A stretch of 64,000 nt of DNA from Sutcliffiella horikoshii. Lineage in GTDB: Bacteria; Bacillota; Bacilli; Bacillales; Bacillaceae_I. The stretch covers positions 3,488,666 through 3,552,665 of the forward strand of contig KV440964.1 of assembly GCA_001636495.1 (NCBI GenBank), written 5' to 3'. Position 1 is the first letter of the stretch, and each line of letters begins with the position of its first letter. Of this stretch, positions 12,766 through 60,331 are shown one piece after another. The notes beneath the pieces were generated by a model. The model did no database searches. It had not been told where the DNA came from and was given only the letters and a program-made list of their open reading frames with translations. A program made the position numbers and the translations under genes.

Positions 12766-12812
12766 TTTTATCCATTAATTTGGCTATAATAGGAGAATAT
12801 TTAGTAAATAAG

Positions 12813-13050
12813 AGCAATGATGAAGAGTAGTACTAAACTGTTTAGTTTTTAGAGAGTTTGTGGATGGTGGGAACAAACAACTAGCGTTTAGGAATGGACT
12901 TCTGAGCTTCATGGCTGAACAAAATCAGTAGGTCATGACGTATCCTTACGTTACAAGGTTAAGTGATTTCAGCATTTTTTTGTATGAAATAATAAGGGTG
13001 GTACCACGGTCCATTCGTCCCTTTTCCAGGGATGAATGGGCCTTTTTGTA
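12813..13050 (+). promoter_or_regulatory. T-box riboswitch (tryptophan) in the trpS leader
   Basis: The T-box core AAGGGTGGTACCACG is at 12994-13008. It is followed by a terminator hairpin (CCATTCGTCCC with GGGATGAATGG, then a T run) at 13009-13050, whose 5' arm can instead pair with the T-box core as antiterminator. A Stem I-like region begins near 12835, and the loop sequence GAATGGACTTC supplies a TGG specifier at 12895-12897, matching tRNA-Trp. Uncharged tRNA-Trp should open transcription of trpS. Confidence 0.92.
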
Positions 13051-13088
13051 TTGTCATCAAACGTAATTTCATACTTGCTTAAATCCCA

Positions 13089-14248
<1,160 letters not shown>

Positions 14249-51960: not shown

Positions 51961-53313
51961 ATGAAAGAAACAAATACAAAAAAACTGACTCTCTTTGCCT
52001 TAACATGGCCTATTTTTATAGAAGTACTCTTGCACATGCTGATGGGGAACGCTGATATCTTGATGCTTAGCCAGTATTCAGATGACTCAGTGGCAGCAGT
52101 AGGGGTTGCCAATCAGATTCTCTTCATGCTGATTGTCATGTTCGGCTTCATAGCAACAGGGACCACCATTCTTGTCGCACAATATCTTGGAGCAAAAAAC
52201 AGAGGGATTGCTGCAGAAGTGACCGTCGTCTCCATTGGAGCCAACCTTCTATTCAGCGTCGCCATCAGCATCGTCGTATTCCTGTTCAGCTCCAAGCTTC
52301 TATTATTGATGGATCTTCCTCCAGAGCTTTTGTCTGAGGCGGATTCCTATTTAAAGCTGGTGGGAGTTTTCTCCTTCATCCAAGCTTCGGTCATTACCAT
52401 CGGTGCCACCATCAGAAGTTACGGTTTCACCAGGGATGCCATGTATGTCACCATCGGAATGAATATCATCAATGTAATAGGAAACTATTTGTTCATCTTT
52501 GGTCCATTCGGCATTCCGGTTCTTGGTGTGGACGGTGTAGCGATTTCCACTGTGGTAAGCCGTACGTTGGGATTGATTGTGATCACGGTCCTACTTTTCA
52601 AAAGGATTGAAGAACCGTTACCTTTCAAAAAAATGTTCAGACTACCTATTGATCATTTGAAAAATCTATTAAAAATCGGCATTCCATCGGCCGGCGAACA
52701 TCTATCCTATAACACATCCCAGATTGTCATCACTTACTTCATCGTCATGATGGGCACGGAAGCACTGACTACGAAAGTGTACACGCAGAGTCTGATGATG
52801 TTCATTTTCCTTTTCAGTCTGGCCATCAGCCAAGGGACACAGATTATGATCGGTCATCAGATAGGAGCTGGACAGGTGGAGGATGCTTATAAACGCTGCA
52901 TTAAAAGCTTGCGACTTGCGATATTAATTTCTGTGTTGACTGCAATCCCAATTGCGATTTTCTCTGATCCTTTATTAGGTTTCTTCACGTCAAACCCTGA
53001 CATTATCGCACTTGGCGGTACCTTGATATTGTTTACAGTCATTTTGGAACCAGGCCGCTCTTTCAATCTTGTAGTTATTAACGCATTGCGTGCTGCAGGG
53101 GATGTAAAGTTTCCTGTCTACATCGGCATTTGCTCGATGTGGGGCGTGAGCGTGACTGTCTCCTATATTTTAGGCATCCATTTCGGCTTAGGACTCATTG
53201 GTGTATGGATCGCCATGATATTAGACGAATGGTTGCGAGGCATCATCATGCTCTTCCGCTGGCGATCACGCATCTGGGTCAATAAATCATTTATTCAAAA
53301 ACAAGCATCCTAA
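51961..53313 (+). CDS. MATE-family multidrug or metabolite exporter
   Basis: A 450-residue membrane protein with about twelve helices in two homologous halves (NADILMLSQYSDDSVAAVGVAN near the N-terminus and GTEALTTKVYTQSLMMFIF in the second half). This is the MatE fold, using Na+ or H+ exchange to export organic compounds. The ATG at 51961 follows AAAAGGAG. It is divergent from the AraC gene and ends in a terminator. Substrate is not known. Confidence 0.9.
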   Translation: MKETNTKKLTLFALTWPIFIEVLLHMLMGNADILMLSQYSDDSVAAVGVANQILFMLIVMFGFIATGTTILVAQYLGAKNRGIAAEVTVVSIGANLLFSVAISIVVFLFSSKLLLLMDLPPELLSEADSYLKLVGVFSFIQASVITIGATIRSYGFTRDAMYVTIGMNIINVIGNYLFIFGPFGIPVLGVDGVAISTVVSRTLGLIVITVLLFKRIEEPLPFKKMFRLPIDHLKNLLKIGIPSAGEHLSYNTSQIVITYFIVMMGTEALTTKVYTQSLMMFIFLFSLAISQGTQIMIGHQIGAGQVEDAYKRCIKSLRLAILISVLTAIPIAIFSDPLLGFFTSNPDIIALGGTLILFTVILEPGRSFNLVVINALRAAGDVKFPVYIGICSMWGVSVTVSYILGIHFGLGLIGVWIAMILDEWLRGIIMLFRWRSRIWVNKSFIQKQAS

Positions 53314-53320
53314 TACCCCA

Positions 53321-53348
53321 AGAGCTCTCCAATCGGAGGGCTCTTTTT
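53321..53348 (+). terminator. Terminator of the MATE gene
   Basis: GAGCTCTCC pairs with GGAGGGCTC around AATC, followed by five T. A near copy lies at 53717. Confidence 0.9.
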
Positions 53349-53368
53349 GATTTACTTTGTTAAACACC

Positions 53369-53495
53369 GCTGTTGATTTCCGCAATAGGCTTCGCTTTCC
53401 GCGGGGCGTCCTTGAGCCTCCTCGCAACACTTGCGGGTCTCAAGATTGTCGCTACTCTCCCGCAGGAGTCTTCGCCTTTTGCTCCAATCAACAGC
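53369..53495 (-). repeat. GC-rich intergenic element R2
   Basis: Minus-strand copy of the covarying-arm family. Outer arms GCTGTTGATT and AATCAACAGC are perfect complements; the core TGAGACCCGCAAGTGTTGCG and GAGGAGGCTCAAG is related to the other copies. A short purine loop (GGAG opposite CGGA) lies at the same place as in R1 and R5. Confidence 0.85.
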
Positions 53496-53584
53496 TCGAA
53501 ACCTGCTCAATATCAGTAATCAATAATAACAGAGCCTTTTGATAATAGATTTAAAAAAATTGAAAATGCAGCAGAAACCTAGGT

Positions 53585-53701
53585 GCTCTCAGTGAAAGGC
53601 GCGCAGACTCCCGCGGGAGGAAGGGACATGGGAGACCCCGCAACGGAGTGAGGAGGCTCCCGGACCGCCCGCAGGAAAGCGAAGCGCCTGTAACGGAGAG
53701 C
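53585..53701 (+). repeat. GC-rich intergenic element R3
   Basis: Outer arms GCTCTC and GAGAGC; core GGAGACCCCGCAACGGAGTG and GAGGAGGCTCC. It is oriented opposite to R2, 90 bases away, so the two face each other. Confidence 0.82.
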
Positions 53702-53716
53702 GAAAGTTAAATGCAA

Positions 53717-53742
53717 GCTCCAACCGGAGGGCTCTTTTTTCG
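53717..53742 (+). terminator. Second copy of the MATE-type terminator
   Basis: AGCTCC pairs with GGAGGGCT around AACC, followed by six T. The sequence is nearly the same as the terminator at 53321, with R2 and R3 between them. Confidence 0.7.
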
Positions 53743-53767
53743 CATTCTCCCACCTCCTCTAACGCTA

Positions 53768-53784
53768 TGTAAGATTTCCTTACA
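53768..53784. promoter_or_regulatory. TnrA/GlnR box 1 of glnK-amtB
   Basis: TGTAAGATTTCCTTACA is a perfect match to TGTNAN7TNACA. Its centre is about 50 bases upstream of the start point predicted from the GATAAT box at 53815, the spacing seen at TnrA-activated promoters. Confidence 0.85.
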
Positions 53785-53814
53785 AACTAGTAAGCGCTTT
53801 CGACTGAATTTTTT

Positions 53815-53854
53815 GATAATTCCTATTGCAAGCCTCATAAATATAGAATATGAT
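53815..53854 (+). promoter_or_regulatory. Candidate promoters of glnK-amtB
   Basis: GATAAT at 53815-53820 has no good -35 and would need TnrA at box 1. A second candidate has TTGCAA at 53826, a 17-bp spacer and TATGAT at 53849. A cre-like TAAGCGCTTTCG is at 53791-53802. Confidence 0.5.
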
Positions 53855-53872
53855 ATAAAACATAACAACTGA

Positions 53873-53889
53873 TGTTAGGAAATATAACA
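53873..53889. promoter_or_regulatory. TnrA/GlnR box 2 of glnK-amtB
   Basis: TGTTAGGAAATATAACA is a second perfect match to TGTNAN7TNACA, 105 bp (ten helical turns) after box 1 and 7 bp before the ribosome site of glnK. Confidence 0.85.
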
Positions 53890-53911
53890 TCTAAATAAAG
53901 GAGAGATATCG

Positions 53912-54253
53912 ATGAAAAAAGTGGAAGCCATCGTCAGACCGGAAACATTCCGTACTCTTCGTGAAAAGCTGGAGGAAGTCGGAATCAATGGATTGACGGT
54001 ATCGGAAGTTGCAGGATGCGGCCAACAGAAAGGGCAACAAGGTCTTTTCAGAGGAAATACATTTGAAATTAAATTGCTGCCGAAAGTGAAGGTGGAAATG
54101 GTAGTGGAAGCGGAATTTGTGGATGAGATTGTACAAATCATCCAAGAAACCTGCTCCAGCAACACTGTCGGGGACGGAAAGATTTTCATCTATCAGATAG
54201 AAGATGCCATTCGGATTCGTACTGGTGAGAACGGGAAACTTGCAATTATCTAA
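53912..54253 (+). CDS. glnK: P-II nitrogen regulator GlnK
   Basis: A 113-residue P-II protein that binds ATP, ADP and 2-oxoglutarate and gates AmtB. The C-terminal nucleotide-binding GDGKIFIYQIEDAIRIRTGE is present. In the T-loop (about 37-55) both Tyr-46 and Tyr-51 are Phe (GLFRGNTF), so uridylylation is impossible, as usual for bacilli. It is first in a glnK-amtB pair, the reverse of the B. subtilis nrgAB order, with two TnrA/GlnR boxes upstream. Confidence 0.93.
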   Translation: MKKVEAIVRPETFRTLREKLEEVGINGLTVSEVAGCGQQKGQQGLFRGNTFEIKLLPKVKVEMVVEAEFVDEIVQIIQETCSSNTVGDGKIFIYQIEDAIRIRTGENGKLAII

Positions 54254-54277
54254 CCCACTAAGAAAGGATGATACAAA

Positions 54278-55651
54278 TTGAAGAAAAAAATAGGATTACT
54301 CGTTACTGGCGGATTACTGATTAGTTCTACTGCACATGCTCAAGCGCCTACAGTGGAAGGATTAAGCGTTTCGCTTGATATGGTCTGGATCATGGTTGCT
54401 GCCCTTTTAGTATTTTTCATGCACGCAGGCTTTGCCATGGTGGAATCAGGCTTTACTAGATCCAAAAATGCCCTGAATATTTTAATGAAGAATTTCTTGA
54501 CCATATCCATTGCAGCCGTACTATATTTGGCCTTAGGATACGCTCTCATGTTCGGCAGTTCCATAGCAGGCTTTACCGGACTAGACGGCTTCTTCCTGAC
54601 AGGCCACGAGGATCAAATCGGCTTCTTCGTATTCCAAGCCATGTTTGCAGCGACTTGCGCCACAATCATTTCGGGTGCTGTAGCAGAACGCATGAAGCTT
54701 TCGAGCTATATCTTATTGACGGTTGCCATGACTGCGGTCATCTATCCGATTGTCGGCCATTGGGTATGGGGCGGCGGATGGTTAGCAGAGCTTGGATTCA
54801 CTGATTTCGCAGGTTCTACCGTGGTCCACCTCACTGGAGCACTTGGAGCAATTGTTGCCGTTAAATTCCTTGGTGCACGTCTTGGAAAATACACGAACGG
54901 AAAAGTAAATGTTATCTCCGGTCATAACATTCCAATTGGAGCCCTTGGGGTATTCATTCTATGGTTCGGTTGGTTCGGATTCAATGGCGGAAGCACCTTG
55001 GCAGCAGATCCGTCCCTTATCCCACATGTCATCACCACCACCTTATTATCCGCTTCCGCCGGGGTGTTGGCATCTGCCTTTTATACGAATTTACGTTACA
55101 ACCGAATTGATCCCTCATTAACACTTAATGGCGCATTGGCAGGTTTGGTTGGAATCACTGCCGGTACAGGAGATGTTTCGCCAATCGGCGCCATCATTAT
55201 CGGTTTGGTTGCAGGAGTTCTTCTGGTAGAGGCCGTTACGTTCATCGATCGAAAAGTGAAGCTTGACGACCCAGTTGGCGCCATCGCGGTTCATGGTGTT
55301 TGCGGGGTTTGGGGCACACTTGCTGTCGGGCTATTCTCCACATCCACCGGGTTATTTTACGGTGGCGGAATCACTCAATTGGGCATCCAAGCAATAGGTG
55401 TGGTTGCAGTTACGGTTTGGACGATCGGATCTGTTAGTGCCTTCCTCTTTATCGTTACTAGATTCACCACAATCCGTGTAACAAAAGAAGAAGAGATTTC
55501 CGGTCTCGACTTTGCAGAGCATGGTTCTTCCGCTTATGAATTCAGAGAATCCGTATTCTCCGATAACAGCTACGCTCCAGAATTTGGAACCGGACTTATC
55601 CACAGACTCAACAACCTAGGCAGCCCAACAAAAAAAGCCAAAGTTAATTAA
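54278..55651 (+). CDS. amtB: Ammonium transporter AmtB
   Basis: A 457-residue channel with a cleavable signal peptide (ending AHAQA) and eleven helices. The two pore histidines are in VVHLTGALGAIVA and AVHGVCGVWGTL; VWIMVAALLVFFMHAGFAMV and FGWFGFNGGSTL are family blocks. The start is a TTG at 54278, with AGAAAGGATG before it. It takes up ammonium when nitrogen is short and is regulated by GlnK made from the same transcript. Confidence 0.95.
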   Translation: MKKKIGLLVTGGLLISSTAHAQAPTVEGLSVSLDMVWIMVAALLVFFMHAGFAMVESGFTRSKNALNILMKNFLTISIAAVLYLALGYALMFGSSIAGFTGLDGFFLTGHEDQIGFFVFQAMFAATCATIISGAVAERMKLSSYILLTVAMTAVIYPIVGHWVWGGGWLAELGFTDFAGSTVVHLTGALGAIVAVKFLGARLGKYTNGKVNVISGHNIPIGALGVFILWFGWFGFNGGSTLAADPSLIPHVITTTLLSASAGVLASAFYTNLRYNRIDPSLTLNGALAGLVGITAGTGDVSPIGAIIIGLVAGVLLVEAVTFIDRKVKLDDPVGAIAVHGVCGVWGTLAVGLFSTSTGLFYGGGITQLGIQAIGVVAVTVWTIGSVSAFLFIVTRFTTIRVTKEEEISGLDFAEHGSSAYEFRESVFSDNSYAPEFGTGLIHRLNNLGSPTKKAKVN

Positions 55652-55712
55652 GTTTAAGAATGCCAACCCTCGACCATCATAGTTATAAATAGAAATTGGA
55701 TTGATGGTTTCC

Positions 55713-55838
55713 CTTTAGATTGAAGTGCAAGGTGTGAGACTCCTGCGGGAGGTAGCGGTAGATTGAGACCCCGCAACGAAGTGAGGAGGCTCAAACACCG
55801 CCCCGCGGAAAGCGAACACCTGGAACGTAAATCTAAAG
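55713..55838 (+). repeat. GC-rich intergenic element R4
   Basis: Outer arms CTTTAGAT and ATCTAAAG are perfect complements; inner arms AAGGTGT/ACACCT match R1. Core TTGAGACCCCGCAACGAAGTG and GAGGAGGCTCAA. It lies between amtB and the terminator at 55857. Confidence 0.88.
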
Positions 55839-55856
55839 GAGTTGAACAAACAACTA

Positions 55857-55898
55857 GAAAAGCGATCCATGGCAGAGCCCATCGGATCGCTTTTTTTA
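55857..55898 (+). terminator. Terminator after amtB and R4
   Basis: AAAGCGATCC pairs with GGATCGCTTT around a 15-nt loop, followed by seven T. Confidence 0.9.
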
Positions 55899-55961
55899 CA
55901 TATACAAAACCTATACAAACATTTAACTATAATGGTATAATTCCTCCTAGAGGTGATAGAC

Positions 55962-56753
55962 TTGAACATCAAAACGTGGGAGAAATTGATCTTCCGATTT
56001 TTTATCATATGGTACATATGCGGAGTCGTCTTATTGACCTTTGACCTTCTTCCTCCATGGTTGGAATGGGCAAATGTCGTTTTCCTTGTAACAGCAGGAA
56101 CTCTTGGAGCGATCTATTTTATCAAAAACTACCGTGGCATCGGAGTCATCTTTACAATGATTGTGTTCGGCGTATCCATGGCTGCTGAGCATTTTGGGGT
56201 GAAATACGGTTTTCTTTTTGGTGACTACTACTATAATTCCTATTTCGGACCAAAGCTGTTTGATGTGCCAATCACGATAGGCTTTGCCTGGGTGTTGGTC
56301 ATTTCGACCTCCCATGTAATCGCACTCAGGATCATCCCCCAAGCCTCCATTATCGCCAAAGCTATACTCGGTGCTTTTGCAACGGTTGTATTGGATCTTA
56401 TCATCGACCCAGTCGCCTTTATCGCGAAAGAGTATTGGATATGGGAAGGATCAAGCTTCTATTATGATATTCCCTTGTTCAACTTTTACAGTTGGTTTGG
56501 ATTGTCCTTGTTGTTCCACCTGTTCATTTTACTTCTTTCCAAAACCGTTTCTTCGAAGGAAAACACCTATTGGGAGAAGAATATGTATATATTATACGGG
56601 CTGATGGTTGCTATGTTCTGTATGATAGCTGTCACAGCGAAACTATATTTGGCGTTGATTGTGACGATTATCCCTACCCTTCTTTTGTACGGGGCCACGC
56701 TCAAATCAAAGGAGTTCACGCATGATTCCAGCAAAAAAAAGCAGACGGTTTGA
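55962..56753 (+). CDS. Carotenoid biosynthesis membrane protein, CruF-like (Caroten_synth/DUF422)
   Basis: A membrane protein with about seven helices. AAEHFGVKYGFLFGDYYY, SHVIALRIIPQ and VVLDLIIDPVAFIAKEYWIW are blocks of the CruF family (Caroten_synth), whose members hydrate terminal double bonds of acyclic carotenoids. In pigmented bacilli it is found in clusters with crtM and crtN. The start is taken as TTG 55962 after AGAGGTGAT. Its end overlaps the acyltransferase gene by 32 nt. C30 pathway membership is inferred from neighbours. Confidence 0.85.
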   Translation: MNIKTWEKLIFRFFIIWYICGVVLLTFDLLPPWLEWANVVFLVTAGTLGAIYFIKNYRGIGVIFTMIVFGVSMAAEHFGVKYGFLFGDYYYNSYFGPKLFDVPITIGFAWVLVISTSHVIALRIIPQASIIAKAILGAFATVVLDLIIDPVAFIAKEYWIWEGSSFYYDIPLFNFYSWFGLSLLFHLFILLLSKTVSSKENTYWEKNMYILYGLMVAMFCMIAVTAKLYLALIVTIIPTLLLYGATLKSKEFTHDSSKKKQTV

Positions 56754-57387
56754 CTTCTTTTTCCACCAATTCAACAAGCGATTCCTTCGATTTCATTTCA
56801 GGGGAGTTAATTTTGCAGAGGGTCCAAACGTTTCCACCCCTTCCTCCCCTGCTCTGTTTATCGTAAATCATAGCACTTGGTGGGATGCGTTAGTTGTTTT
56901 TCATTTTAATCAGCTTGTCATTAAACAGGAAAGCTATGTGATGATGCATGAAAAAGGGGTCAAGGAATTCCCGTTTTTCCGTAAAATTGGGGCATTCTCC
57001 GTAAACAGAGAAAACCCTAAGGATATTGTCCGTTCCATGAACTATGCAAAAGAGCGACTGAAAGACGGGAAAACACTATGGCTGTTCCCGCAAGGCGATG
57101 AACGCCACCTTGAAATCCGCCCGCTTACATTCCTTCCTGGCGCCTTACATATCGTGAAAAACACCGATATTCCGATTGTCCCTGTGTGCCTATACTATAC
57201 ATTTACCGGTGAGAGAAAGCCGGAAGTATTTATTAAACTCGATGAACCTATCCTTTATTCTCAGCTTAACGGTACTTCAGCGAAAGAGAAGAATCAATAC
57301 CTGGAAGACCACTATACCACCCTTCTTGACAGGGTAAAGCAGGACGTAATCGAACAAAATACTGCTAATTATCGGTCATTATTATAA
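56722..57387 (+). CDS. PlsC-type acyltransferase, carotenoid cluster
   Basis: A 221-residue acyltransferase of the 1-acylglycerol-3-phosphate acyltransferase fold. The catalytic HxxxxD is VNHSTWWDALVVF and the substrate block is LFPQGDERH. Near its C-terminus it has IPIVPVCLYYTFTGERKPEV. In this setting it probably esterifies the sugar of a glycosylated C30 carotenoid. The ATG follows AAAGGAG and overlaps the preceding gene. Confidence 0.83.
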   Translation: MIPAKKSRRFDFFFHQFNKRFLRFHFRGVNFAEGPNVSTPSSPALFIVNHSTWWDALVVFHFNQLVIKQESYVMMHEKGVKEFPFFRKIGAFSVNRENPKDIVRSMNYAKERLKDGKTLWLFPQGDERHLEIRPLTFLPGALHIVKNTDIPIVPVCLYYTFTGERKPEVFIKLDEPILYSQLNGTSAKEKNQYLEDHYTTLLDRVKQDVIEQNTANYRSLL

Positions 57388-57397
57388 ACAAACTCTA

Positions 57398-57433
57398 GCT
57401 GTTGATGGAAACTTAGTGCGGAAATCAACAGCT
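57398..57433. repeat. Core-less remnant of the GC-rich element family
   Basis: AGCTGTTGAT and ATCAACAGCT are complementary arms 36 bp apart end to end. The right side, TGCGGAAATCAACAGC, is identical to the matching end of R2 (minus strand), but the GC-rich core is missing. It lies between the acyltransferase and glycosyltransferase genes. Confidence 0.7.
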
Positions 57434-57471
57434 GCGTCTAACAGAACTACTTTTAAAAGGAGGAAACCGTT

Positions 57472-58581
57472 ATGGAATCATTCATCTATCTGCTATCTGC
57501 CGCACTTTTTGTTTCTTTCCTTTGGATTATCATTAACGGCCAATTCTATCCTACCTATCAAAAACCATCCAGACTGTCACCTCCCCCCCTTGTATCCATT
57601 CTCATTCCCATGCGAGATGAAGAGCGCAACGTGCAACCACTTATTGAAAACCTGAAACAGCTTACATTTCCAAACCTGGAGATCATTCTCCTCGATGACC
57701 ACTCCTCCGATGAAACATACTCCAAGGCGATGGCCTTAACAATAAAAGATAGCAGGTTTTCCTTGATTCAGGGCGTTCCTCTAAAAAAGGGATGGGCCGG
57801 AAAAGTGCATGCCTGTTATCAATTGTCCCATGCTGCAAATGGAGATTATCTTCTATTTCTTGATGCAGATGCTCGTTTAAAGGAAAACACCATCAAAAGG
57901 ATGCTTCCTTTTTTCCGGAATGAAAAAGTCGGGCTTGTAACAGGTTTTCCCCATTTCCCGGTCACCTCTTGGTTAAGCAAACTGTTGGTACCGATGCAGC
58001 ATTTTGTTATTTGGCTTCATCTCCCACTAGCACTTGCCAACTATAGCTCTTTCAAGCCAGCAAGTGCGGCCCACGGAGCATTCATGTTTTTTGAAAGAAG
58101 TGCCTATGATTTTGTGGAAGGGCATTTTTCCGTAAAATCCAGCATCGTGGAAGATGTACATTTGGCGAGGGTCATGAAAGAGCACGAATTTCAGGTAAAA
58201 TTGATCAATGCGACCCCGTATGTTACCTGTCATATGTATGAAAGCAACCAGGAGGTCTGGAACGGCTTTTTGAAAAACATTTATATCGGAATCGGGAAAT
58301 CTCCTTTCATGGTCGCATTTTTAACTATCTTTTACAGCTTGTTTTATGTATTGCCTCTCTTATTGGCATTTCTGTCGCCGTTTTACGGGATATGGTTCAT
58401 CGTGCCCCTATTGCTCGTCTGGGTACAGAAACTCTACATTGATCTGCAAACCGGTCAGGTATCCTATCTGTTTTTATTCATGCCACTAAGCGCTCTGGCT
58501 TTCCTTATCATCATGCATGCATCCATGTGGAAGTCATTAAAAAATCAACATTATATCTGGAAGGGGCGTGCCTATAAATGA
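57472..58581 (+). CDS. crtQ: Family 2 glycosyltransferase, CrtQ-like
   Basis: A 369-residue membrane-associated glycosyltransferase. VSILIPMRDEERN, ILLDDHSSDET and the DxD-type LFLDADARL belong to the GT2 fold, and C-terminal helices (about 285-330) anchor it. S. aureus CrtQ adds glucose to diaponeurosporenoic acid; a similar step is inferred. A strong ribosome site (AAAAGGAGG) precedes the ATG and the stop overlaps the next start by 4 nt. Confidence 0.85.
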   Translation: MESFIYLLSAALFVSFLWIIINGQFYPTYQKPSRLSPPPLVSILIPMRDEERNVQPLIENLKQLTFPNLEIILLDDHSSDETYSKAMALTIKDSRFSLIQGVPLKKGWAGKVHACYQLSHAANGDYLLFLDADARLKENTIKRMLPFFRNEKVGLVTGFPHFPVTSWLSKLLVPMQHFVIWLHLPLALANYSSFKPASAAHGAFMFFERSAYDFVEGHFSVKSSIVEDVHLARVMKEHEFQVKLINATPYVTCHMYESNQEVWNGFLKNIYIGIGKSPFMVAFLTIFYSLFYVLPLLLAFLSPFYGIWFIVPLLLVWVQKLYIDLQTGQVSYLFLFMPLSALAFLIIMHASMWKSLKNQHYIWKGRAYK

Positions 58582-60044
58582 AAAAAGTAATTGTCATTGG
58601 AGGCGGGCTTGGTGGGCTTTCTGCTGCCATCACGCTTGCTTCCAAAGGATTTACAGTAACCTTACTTGAAAAAAATAGTCATTTGGGCGGAAAACTGATG
58701 CCGGTTCAACTCGGGCAGGCCTCCTTTGATTTTGGCCCGAATACCATTACCATGCCAAAAGTATTTCAAGAGGTCATCTCCCAGACAGGGGAAGACCCCA
58801 GCAACTATATGGAATTTGTAAAGCTTGATACCCACACAAGAAATTATTTTCCTGACGGAAGCTGCTTTGACTTCAGTTCTGATAAAGAAAAGATGGTAGA
58901 TCAACTGGCAAAACTTGATCCTGTCGGCGCAAAGAACTACGCCTCGTTCCTAAAAGAGATCACTAGATTATACAAACTGGGTGAGGCACAGTTTTTCCGT
59001 AGAACTTTTACTTCTACAAAGGATTATCTCTCCCCAGGGCTAGCCGCGTCTTTCAGTAGAGTGAGGCCTTTACAATCACTGCATGGTTTTCATCAGAATT
59101 ACTTTTCCAATCCGTTCATCATTCAAGCCTTGGACCGCTATGCTACATACATAGGCTCTTCCCCCTACGTCTCACCCGCTACCTTTGGTCTGATTGCCTA
59201 TTTGGAACTCGTGGAAGGCGTTTATTACACAAAAGGAGGGAACAGCAAGATCGCCGACGGATTCGAAATGGCGGCACGTAAAATGGGAGTGACCATCCGG
59301 ACTGATTGTAAAGTTACAAGTATCGAGGTGAAAAATAAACAAGCTGTTTCCGTTTCGACTGAAGACGGTGAGAATTATCCTGCCGATTCGATTGTCATGA
59401 ATGCAGATTTACTGGCTGCCTATCCTGCCCTCGTGAACGAAGTGGATAGGCCTCATTTTACCGATAAAAAAGCCAAGAGCTATGAACCTTCCATTTCCGC
59501 CTATGTCCTGCTTGCCGAAATGAACAAGAGGCACTCTGAGCTCCTCCATCACACAGTCTATTTTTCTAACGACTACCAAAAGGAGTTTGAGAGTTTGTTT
59601 CAAGCAAAGAAATATGCATCAGACCCTACCATCTATCTGAGTAATTCATCTTACACAGAAAAAGAGAAAAGCCCCAATGGTGATAACCTGTTCATCTTGG
59701 TGAATGCACCTGCAACAAGCAATGATACTACCGGCATCCCGGAAAACTACAAAGACCATATTTACAACACATTAGCTCAAAAGGGGCTTTCGCTGAAGGA
59801 TCATGTCCTGACTGAAAAGGTCATCACGCCAGAGGACATTCAATCTAAATTTGGAGCTTTCAGGGGCGCTCTATACGGAGTGGCTTCCAATCGGAAAATG
59901 GATGCCTTCTTCCGCCCAAGAAACAAATCGGCCGATATCGGAAACCTCTACTTTGTCGGAGGCTCCACACATCCCGGCGGAGGGTCCCCCATGGTCACCC
60001 TCTCCGGATTAAATGTAGGAAAAGTCATTGCAGAACGAGAATAA
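58578..60044 (+). CDS. CrtN-family FAD oxidoreductase, CrtP-like
   Basis: A 488-residue phytoene-desaturase-family flavoprotein. FAD fold VIGGGLGGLSAAITLASKGF at the N-terminus with EKNSHLGGK, and the C-terminal FVGGSTHPGGGSPMV. By position in an acyltransferase-crtQ block it is more likely to oxidise the carotenoid end group (CrtP/CrtNb type) than to desaturate phytoene, but this is not certain. The start overlaps crtQ by 4 nt. Confidence 0.83.
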   Translation: MKKVIVIGGGLGGLSAAITLASKGFTVTLLEKNSHLGGKLMPVQLGQASFDFGPNTITMPKVFQEVISQTGEDPSNYMEFVKLDTHTRNYFPDGSCFDFSSDKEKMVDQLAKLDPVGAKNYASFLKEITRLYKLGEAQFFRRTFTSTKDYLSPGLAASFSRVRPLQSLHGFHQNYFSNPFIIQALDRYATYIGSSPYVSPATFGLIAYLELVEGVYYTKGGNSKIADGFEMAARKMGVTIRTDCKVTSIEVKNKQAVSVSTEDGENYPADSIVMNADLLAAYPALVNEVDRPHFTDKKAKSYEPSISAYVLLAEMNKRHSELLHHTVYFSNDYQKEFESLFQAKKYASDPTIYLSNSSYTEKEKSPNGDNLFILVNAPATSNDTTGIPENYKDHIYNTLAQKGLSLKDHVLTEKVITPEDIQSKFGAFRGALYGVASNRKMDAFFRPRNKSADIGNLYFVGGSTHPGGGSPMVTLSGLNVGKVIAERE

Positions 60045-60097
60045 TCCCTTAAGCAAAAGGCGTGCAAAATGAAGATCGTATAGTTTAGTAATTTCTA

Positions 60098-60224
60098 GCT
60101 GGTGATTGGAGCAAATGGCGTAGACTCCAGCGGGGGAGTAGCGACAATCTTGAGACCCCGCAACGAAGTGAGGAGGCTTAAGGTCGCCCCGCGGAAAGCG
60201 AAGCCATTTGCGGAAAGCAACAGC
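60098..60224 (+). repeat. GC-rich intergenic element R5
   Basis: Outer arms GCTGGTGATTGGAGCAAATG and CATTTGCGGAAAGCAACAGC are largely complementary, with the GGAG/CGGA purine loop. Core TTGAGACCCCGCAACGAAGTG and GAGGAGGCTTAAG. It lies between the two convergent carotenoid blocks. Confidence 0.87.
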
Positions 60225-60294
60225 GGCGTTTAAACAAACCCTAAAAACAAATACTTTTTAAACGGCCGGAAATCAACCGCATACAGAATCAAAA

Positions 60295-60331
60295 AAATCA
60301 CCACAGTGTCCTTCCACCGTGGTGATTTTTT
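60295..60331. terminator. Bidirectional terminator between the carotenoid blocks
   Basis: AAATCACCAC pairs with GTGGTGATTT around a loop of about 15 nt; A and T runs are on both sides. Confidence 0.9.

What the first reader, a model, noticed from the sequence alone, without database searches (positions are those of the whole stretch)
53369..60224. GC-rich elements with arms that vary between copies but stay complementary within each copy
R1 (13089), R2 (53369), R3 (53585), R4 (55713) and R5 (60098) share a core (GAGACCCCGCAACGAAGTG and GAGGAGGCTC). Their outer arms differ, for example GCTGTTGATT/AATCAACAGC in R2, CTTTAGAT/ATCTAAAG in R4 and GCTCTC/GAGAGC in R3, yet each pair remains complementary. 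A purine-purine loop (GGA or GGAG opposite GGA or CGGA) sits at the same place in R1, R2 and R5. Seen directly: the sequences and pairing. Inferred: covariation points to a selected structured RNA or DNA cruciform, or to a copying mechanism that renews both arms. I recall similar GC-rich repeats in other Bacillaceae but know no established function.
Basis: partly seen in the sequence, partly recalled or inferred. Interest (0 to 1): 0.72.

Follow-up and report, generated by a model that had tools for sequence, protein, structure and literature searches.

The report
Structured repeat carried by bacterial transposons
The window carries copies of a roughly 125-letter hairpin that is found in most sampled genomes of the Bacillus order, often in many copies, keeps its base pairing while its letters change, and in related species travels inside several different kinds of small transposon.

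Summary
R1-R5 are five of at least 150 copies in this genome (capped) of a ~125-nt hairpin rod (genus Sutcliffiella, inferred). Covariation is strong: 103 double-change cells against 29 shuffled in 29 copies; 529 against 151 in 78 matches from other records. It is in 49 of 61 sampled genomes, 16 of them its own genus. No Rfam match; six literature searches found nothing.

In sister species rods lie inside units with TIR CAGTGTRTAGACAAA flanked by duplicated terminator hairpins (29 of 30), units with TIR GGCTYTGTTAAA and 8-bp duplications (8 of 10), and full-length IS1182-like elements. R5 is probably a remnant of the last.

Orthologous rods lose pairing at about the neutral rate. Within the TIR units arm differences are mostly one-sided. 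So pairing is probably selected in propagating lineages, not renewed at each jump.

Unexplained: solo type-A rods without TIRs, including R1 and R4, have the most arm double changes and lie sense between tandem genes 26 to 1. An RNA role stays open.

The parts
13085..13225 (+). R1, type A rod, between the T-box leader (12808-13025) and the next reading frame
   Evidence: CM match 150.1 bits; T-box by Rfam; arms CCTGGTAGTTT/AAACAACCAGG with one mismatch
53321..53348 (+). intrinsic-terminator-like hairpin left of the R2/R3 pair
   Evidence: AGAGCTCTCCAATCGGAGGGCTCTTTTT, read by eye
53361..53500 (-). R2, type C rod, head-to-head with R3
   Evidence: CM match 104.9 bits; arms GCTGTTGATT/AATCAACAGC
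53574..53712 (+). R3, type B rod
   Evidence: CM match 93.6 bits; arms mostly lost (GCTC/GAGC)
53715..53740 (+). second, similar terminator hairpin, right of R3
   Evidence: AAGCTCCAACCGGAGGGCTCTTTTTT. G015 and G012 have one terminator and no whole rod here; but G001, G006, G007, G008 and G013 have a C(-)/B(+) pair here with a terminator seen only downstream, so the two copies do not prove an insertion
55707..55847 (+). R4, type A rod, after the stop of an AmtB-like gene (name recalled, not searched) and before its terminator
   Evidence: CM match 158.4 bits; at the same place in G015 and G012; absent, with diverged flanks, in 11 other same-genus genomes whose site was read
57398..57432 (+). 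deletion remnant of a type C rod: both arms left, interior gone
   Evidence: GCTGTTGATGGAAACTTAGTGCGGAAATCAACAGC, read by eye
60093..60232 (+). R5, type C rod, after the last gene of a carotenoid-like cluster (name recalled, not searched)
   Evidence: CM match 127 bits
60233..60267 (+). probable decayed left end of an IS1182-like element beside R5 (TACTTTTTAAACGGCC against TACTTTTTCAGTGGCC)
   Evidence: query 7091-7268 matches five G013 places at 85%, each 89 bp from a transposase gene; intact end read in L386

Best explanation
R1-R5 belong to one order-wide family of short, non-coding mobile DNA modules. The module is a ~125-nt sequence that folds into one long rod: outer arm, GNA/GNA loops, lower helix, TCC-GCGGG/CCCGC-GGA helix, upper helix and a variable tip. 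SHOWN: in sister species rods are the core of two MITE-like units with different terminal inverted repeats and different target duplications, and sit inside full-length IS1182-like elements that also exist without the rod. INFERRED: the transposases of such elements move the units. Pairing is kept because only well-folded copies keep propagating, and because rods at a site are sometimes replaced whole by other rods; a copy that stays put loses pairing. That gives arms that differ between copies but match within a copy. Copies settle mostly downstream of genes, in sense. Why sense is preferred and how TIR-less type A rods spread is not known.
For: Copy number and spread. Covariation. TIR units: of the TIR pairs listed I fetched 40, and all 40 hold a rod; terminator hairpin on both sides in 29 of 30 TIR1 units (by eye; the script's strict test passed 2); exact 8-bp duplication in 8 of 10 TIR2 units. 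TIR counts against the reversed-pattern control: TIR1 (up to 1 mismatch) 315 vs 6 in G002, 131 vs 6 in G015, 118 vs 5 in G012; TIR2 43 vs 3 in G015, 16 vs 1 in own. Rod inside an IS1182-like element in 5 of 30 fetched transposase loci, 4 genomes, 4 of the 5 with an uninterrupted transposase frame; IS ends measured: about 1,864-1,879 bp with rod (4), 1,685-1,697 without (7). Nested insertion with an uninterrupted site in two relatives and 8-bp duplication (L105). Loss of pairing in place.
Against: Most rods of this genome, type A above all, show no TIR, and a flank-matching test found no target duplication at a fixed distance. TIR1 is nearly absent here (11 matches, control 3), so it does not explain this genome's B rods. 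Type A has the most arm double changes (68 of 513 cells; B 23 of 306, C 19 of 595) and no mover was identified for it. Rods are nearly absent from plasmids (2 of 72,556 records) and were not found in phages (0 of 50,697), odd for an active element (one query each). No transposase was tied to TIR2: ISL3 had no match in 4 of 4 genomes. In the 21 ortholog pairs rods diverge less than the adjacent 60-nt flanks (paired 5.2%, unpaired 6.2%, flanks 10.9%), paired sites diverge less than unpaired ones, and 9 compensated double changes occur.
Confidence: 0.58

Rival explanations
1. A functional RNA element: sense-strand rods in 3' regions and between genes of an operon act on the mRNA (stability, processing or read-through). 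Sites are kept by selection, and transposons merely carried the module about.
For: Solo type A rods between two tandem genes: sense 26, antisense 1; type C 23:8; B 5:3. Orientation follows the gene on lagging-strand genes too: sense 6, antisense 1. In other records solo rods with a same-strand gene upstream: 34 of 43. Conserved internal loops across the order. G.U exceeds A.C in inner helices, 42 to 19. Type A arms have the most double changes. Ortholog rods diverge about half as much as their flanks.
Against: In orthologs pairing is lost at about the neutral rate: 13 kept, 44 broken, 16.5 kept expected; G.U 13, A.C 18; type A alone 7 kept, 22 broken, 9.0 expected. G.U does not exceed A.C in the outer arms, 23 to 19. 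Presence at a site differs between sister species. No expression data.
Confidence: 0.27
2. Arms are rewritten by a templated mechanism (quasi-palindrome correction or snap-back synthesis), so complementarity needs no selection.
For: Rods with interiors at least 97% identical (38 rod pairs) still differ at 19.5% of outer-arm pairs against 2.1% of body pairs. The tip changes often between orthologs.
Against: Units spread with their TIRs change one arm at a time: 36 one-sided and 0 double in 9 G015 units; 402 one-sided, 28 compensated, 133 other double in 19 G002 units. Their mean interior identity is 0.76 and 0.80, so they are not all recent copies. Single changes dominate in orthologs.
Confidence: 0.12
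3. REP/BIME elements moved by a REP-associated Y1 transposase (RAYT).
For: Short, extragenic, palindromic; often in head-to-head pairs: 17 of 19 neighbours within 600 bp are (-,+), none (+,-). A RAYT-like gene is present.
Against: No rod in the 50 fetched Y1 loci: 0 matches in 30 and nothing below E 0.018 in 20. The own RAYT-like gene is flanked by another repeat, GGGGTCAGACCCC. 4 of the 49 genomes with rods have no Y1 match.
Confidence: 0.02

Closest known systems
bcr1-bcr3 repeats of the Bacillus cereus group
   Same: Short interspersed intergenic repeats described as MITE-like and often part of UTRs or operon gaps (passages of PMC3446304); bcr1 is 147-167 bp (passages of PMC2267715)
   Different: No bcr sequence was compared here. 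The rod is order-wide, covaries strongly, and is shared by units with unrelated TIRs.
[quoted passage not shown]
   Same: TIR1 and TIR2 units: TIRs at both ends, target duplication, mostly 183-220 bp, no gene seen
   Different: Ordinary MITEs are defined by their TIRs (recalled); here one core is shared by units with different TIRs, and most copies in this genome show none.
IS1182-family insertion sequences
   Same: PF13751 transposase, TIR GAGGSCACTGAAAAA, 8-9-bp duplication where readable; some copies hold a rod
   Different: The rod is optional in them. The family name rests on PF13751 and recall; no IS reference library was searched.
REP sequences as insertion targets of IS elements (ISPsy8)
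   Same: An IS inserts at the symmetry axis of a repeat hairpin (passages of PMC1525189), as IS1182-like units do in rod tips and terminators
   Different: Different repeat, IS family and duplication length (3 bp there).
Bhal-1 stem-loop family of Bacillus halodurans
   Same: Repeated stem-loop family in a relative, 36 copies (passages of PMC2267715)

Membership tests
MITE | terminal inverted repeats | tested here: met
   met for TIR1 and TIR2 units and a third TIR; not found for most rods of this genome
MITE | target-site duplication | tested here: met
   terminator hairpin on both sides in 29 of 30 TIR1 units, by eye; 8-bp exact in 8 of 10 TIR2 units; no fixed-distance duplication for rods in general
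MITE | parent element with matching TIRs and transposase | tested here: inconclusive
   third TIR: full IS with PF13751 transposase; TIR1: one decayed PF13751 locus, L385, with TIR-like ends at 1 and 2 mismatches; TIR2: none, ISL3 without match in 4 of 4
REP/RAYT | association with a RAYT gene | tested here: not met
Rfam families (4227 models) | score at or above gathering threshold | tested here: not met
   only the T-box at 12808-13025 in the window; in 53300-60300 the one match on a rod is 16.4 bits against a gathering score of 50
bcr1 | sequence similarity to bcr1 | not tested
   no bcr1 sequence held; paper PMC524882 not held
functional structured RNA | covariation across the family | tested here: met
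functional structured RNA | pairing conserved at orthologous sites | tested here: not met
   13 kept, 44 broken, 16.5 kept expected; 21 ortholog pairs; but rods diverge less than flanks
functional structured RNA | transcription of the sense strand | not testable with these tools
   no RNA-seq; only sense orientation relative to genes

The most novel reading that the evidence does not exclude
The rod is a portable RNA module: a conserved sense-strand structure that acts in 3' regions and between genes of operons across the Bacillus order. Several unrelated transposons have captured and spread it as shared cargo because it makes insertions tolerable to the host, and type A rods now evolve arms of their own at each site through compensatory change.
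Probability: 0.22. Interest if true: 0.85.

Novelty: new variant of a known kind. Interest (0 to 1): 0.6.

Why it matters
One folded non-coding module, present in most sampled families of a bacterial order and often in dozens or more copies per genome, is the core of transposon-like units with unrelated ends. Known kinds of small bacterial repeat are usually defined by their ends or by one mover (recalled), so a core that swaps ends raises the question of what the fold does for a transposon or its host. The strong sense bias of solo rods makes that testable with ordinary reporters. It also shows that covariation among dispersed copies need not mean selection at each site.

Tried and rejected
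RAYT/Y1 mobilisation: rejected.

Lead that first looked convincing and was dropped: arms renewed at each jump, from near-identical interiors with different arms; TIR units do not behave so, though they are not all recent copies.

Target duplication directly at the rod ends: none at fixed offset above the shuffled control. A search for inverted repeats around rods found only a few clear cases; an 18-nt one around the type A rod L036 was not examined.

Replication-strand bias: a first split with the origin placed at coordinate 0 was wrong. GC skew puts the switches near 0.54 and 2.7 Mb (read by eye), and one search was redone with these. A first orientation count lost 24 of 129 rods to spurious frames over the rods; one search masks these.

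Autonomous element between distant TIR pairs (L379-L383): no transposase recognised by eye, no family search run. Far-apart rod pair in L228 flanks ordinary genes. ISL3 transposase for TIR2: none.

Rows dropped or parts given: A1 holds 29 of the 33 copies aligned (left out: chimeric L021 and L024, and L019, L025). Searches used 145 of 149 matches and searches used 143, dropping the weakest (antisense or partial). One search was given 61 of the 80 loci listed, leaving out records titled Sutcliffiella, Bacillus sp. RO1, RO2 and CHD6a, a Gemmatimonadales MAG and a Pseudomonas record; 58 of the 61 matched, and the 78 rows include a few weak or antisense matches. One search used the first 62 of 78 rows of A5 and skipped the apical pairs. 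One search used 21 of 45 matched ortholog rods at identity 0.86 or more and 20 at 0.70-0.86, leaving out 4 below 0.70; one of the 20 (L105 with G012) compares a nested rod with the rod around it and is not orthologous, and many own rods enter twice, once per relative. One search classed 91 solo rods; one search classed 43 and left out 17 rods (solo or paired) at locus ends. Reading frames come from my own script, not curated annotation. One search scored only 150 of 1003 candidates, so 150 is a lower bound; one search capped each genome at 53. IS end positions were set by hand and may be off by a few bases; L394, counted as rod-free, has a weak match (E 0.035) over its right end.

Literature: search listings only; passages seen of PMC2267715, PMC3446304 and PMC1525189. 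None of the six listings showed a paper describing this repeat; most subscription papers are not held.
Full report
WHAT IS THERE. The window lies at C1:3488666-3552665 of a 4.26-Mb genome. The genus is inferred: contigs of the same-genus genome G012 (543,087 and 1,105,767 bases) have the lengths of Sutcliffiella horikoshii biET1 contigs. R1-R5 match one covariance model. The exact core occurs 59 times in the genome, and at least 150 copies match the model, the search being capped at 150. The rod reads, from outside in: a 10-bp outer arm (commonest CTGTTGATT/AATCAACAG); a 3x3 GNA/GNA loop; a short GT/AC or GC/GC helix; a lower helix (AGGTGT/ACACCT and variants); an AGAC/AAAGCGAA loop; TCC-GCGGG/CCCGC-GGA; an upper helix; then GAGACCCC...GAGGAGGCTC with a tip that varies in length and sequence. 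Types were sorted by script: A 52, B 33, C 42 and 18 C-like of 145 rods.

COVARIATION. On 29 copies: 92.5% of cells paired (shuffled 84.0), 22 pairs with a change on both sides (shuffled 11.8), 103 double-change cells (shuffled 29.0; slid versions 7-27). On 78 matches in 58 of 61 loci from records not titled Sutcliffiella: 91.0% (71.5), 529 double cells (150.7 +- 9.9; slid 100-137). That alignment was fitted to the model, which leans it towards the structure. By type, outer-arm double cells are 68 of 513 (20.1 shuffled) in A, 23 of 306 (6.7) in B and 19 of 595 (3.3) in C: A has the most, C the largest ratio to its shuffle. Shuffles do not remove relatedness.

DISTRIBUTION. Named hosts include Peribacillus, Priestia, Neobacillus, Metabacillus, Oceanobacillus, Sporosarcina, Lysinibacillus, Halobacillus and Sporolactobacillus. 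Plasmids: 2 of 72,556 records; phages: 0 of 50,697; one query each. Rfam: none.

ARRANGEMENT. Of 19 neighbouring pairs within 600 bp in own DNA, 17 are head to head (-,+), one (--) and one (++); 16 of the 17 join a C or C-like rod with an A or B rod. R2/R3 is such a pair. In other records: 9 (-,+), 2 (--). Solo rods (91): between tandem genes in sense 54, antisense 12; convergent 18; divergent 7. Type A: 26 sense, 1 antisense, 5 convergent, 4 divergent. The sense bias is 6 to 1 for lagging-strand genes and 48 to 11 for leading-strand genes. In other records: 19 sense, 7 antisense, 15 convergent, 2 divergent of 43.

MOBILE CONTEXT. Sister genomes G015 and G012 gave flanks for 42 own sites. Empty or nearly empty sites showed three carriers. 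(i) Units with ends CAGTGTRTAGACAAA...TTTGTCAACAGTCTG around a mostly type-B rod, set in terminator hairpins, with a similar hairpin on both sides (29 of 30 fetched units, by eye; 25 are 206-220 bp, one 175, four 441-455). This TIR is counted, at up to one mismatch, 315, 131 and 118 times in G002, G015 and G012 but 11 times here (controls 6, 6, 5, 3). (ii) Units with ends GGCTYTGTTAAA around a C rod, nine of ten 183-190 bp, with an exact 8-bp duplication in 8 of 10. (iii) Units with ends like GGCCACTGAAAAA around a C rod, one of them in the tip of a type A rod with duplication CAATGAAG; G015 and G012 have uninterrupted rods aligned there (L105). A complete IS in G012 has ends of the third kind, a 494-codon uninterrupted frame matching PF13751 and a C rod between its left end and the gene; it sits in the tip of a B rod. 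Its transposase has matches at E <= 1e-40 in 29 of 199 genomes of the order. Of 30 fetched loci, 5 hold a rod inside the IS: at the transposase's upstream side in L391, L392, L409 and L420, at the other end in L400; in L392 this is inferred from the spacing shared with L420, and the L409 frame is broken. With ends measured, IS with a rod are about 1,864-1,879 bp (4) and without about 1,685-1,697 bp (7). Five near-identical IS in G013 have a rod 89 bp from the transposase gene, and R5's similarity to these five places runs 35 nt beyond the rod, so R5 is probably the decayed end of such an IS. The two terminator copies around R2/R3 would fit a hairpin duplication, but no TIR1 is recognisable there, and five other species have a C(-)/B(+) pair at this locus with a terminator seen only downstream, so this is open.

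HOW ARMS CHANGE. Between 38 pairs of paralogs with interiors at least 97% identical, 19.5% of arm pairs differ against 2.1% of body pairs, which first suggested renewal at each jump. But in units spread with their TIRs the changes are mostly one-sided: 36 one-sided and no double change in 9 G015 units (mean interior identity 0.76); 402 one-sided, 28 compensated and 133 other double differences in 19 G002 units (0.80) (related copies and often unpaired outermost positions are included). Compensated doubles are 28 of 1710 arm-pair comparisons there, against 16% in own rods of 0.75-0.85 interior identity. At orthologous sites, 21 rod pairs of identity >= 0.86 show single changes 13 keeping and 44 breaking pairing (16.5 kept expected), G.U 13 and A.C 18, and 9 compensated of 12 double changes. 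So pairing is lost about neutrally. Against this stands that these rods diverge less (paired 5.2%, unpaired 6.2%) than the adjacent 60-nt flanks (10.9%), in part because they were chosen for identity. In 20 further pairs (0.70-0.86) blocks of compensated change (58 of 68 doubles) appear with flanks still aligned in many cases, as if the rod had been replaced by another. Which process replaces them, conversion or re-insertion, is not shown.

READING. The most economical account is a non-autonomous mobile module whose fold matters while it propagates and is not kept at each site. The weak points are type A rods: no TIR, most arm double changes, strongest sense bias. A role on the mRNA would explain the last two and the lower divergence, but not the loss of pairing. 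In B. cereus, MITE-like bcr1-3 repeats are often parts of UTRs or operon gaps, and only bcr3 correlated with decay rate (passages of PMC3446304). That is an analogy, not a test.

NOVELTY. Known kind: short structured interspersed repeats and MITEs. New in what I saw: one covarying core shared by units with unrelated ends and by full IS, across an order. 'Not in print' rests on six searches of an open-access library only.

Noticed in passing
L339-L368 (G002, G012): A ~210-bp MITE-like unit inserts into intrinsic terminators and leaves a terminator hairpin on both sides; its TIR is counted 315 times in G002 and 11 times in the window's genome (control 3).
   Followed up: partly
L386:122-2010, L420:1232-3095, L105:13088-13230, L378: IS1182-like elements and their small derivatives insert into the apical tip of rods; duplications read (CAATGAAG, CTTCGTTG) are tip sequence, so rods act as landing sites.
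   Followed up: partly
L021, L024, L097:1501-1630, L118:5633-5765: Chimeric rods whose 5' half is replaced by another repeat (GCATTTTCTTCGTGCGATG...CCTTCCTTGTCC) joined near the same point.
   Followed up: no
L161:1125-1265 and 2533-2660; L170; L173: A RAYT-like gene (L161:2593-3339) flanked by its own repeat GGGGTCAGACCCC/GGGGTCTGACCCC.
   Followed up: partly
window 57398-57432: A rod remnant that kept both arms and lost the interior; other remnants in G012 and G015 keep the 3' arm.
   Followed up: no
orthologous rods, e.g. window 55764-55791 against L062 and L063: The tip switches between a few alleles (such as GCAACGAAGTG and TGAAGCGTTGTG) at orthologous sites while most of the rod stays the same.
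   Followed up: partly
L238, L265: The core pattern also occurs in a record titled Gemmatimonadales MAG and one titled Pseudomonas sp. ISL-84; contamination or misnaming seems likely but was not checked.
   Followed up: no
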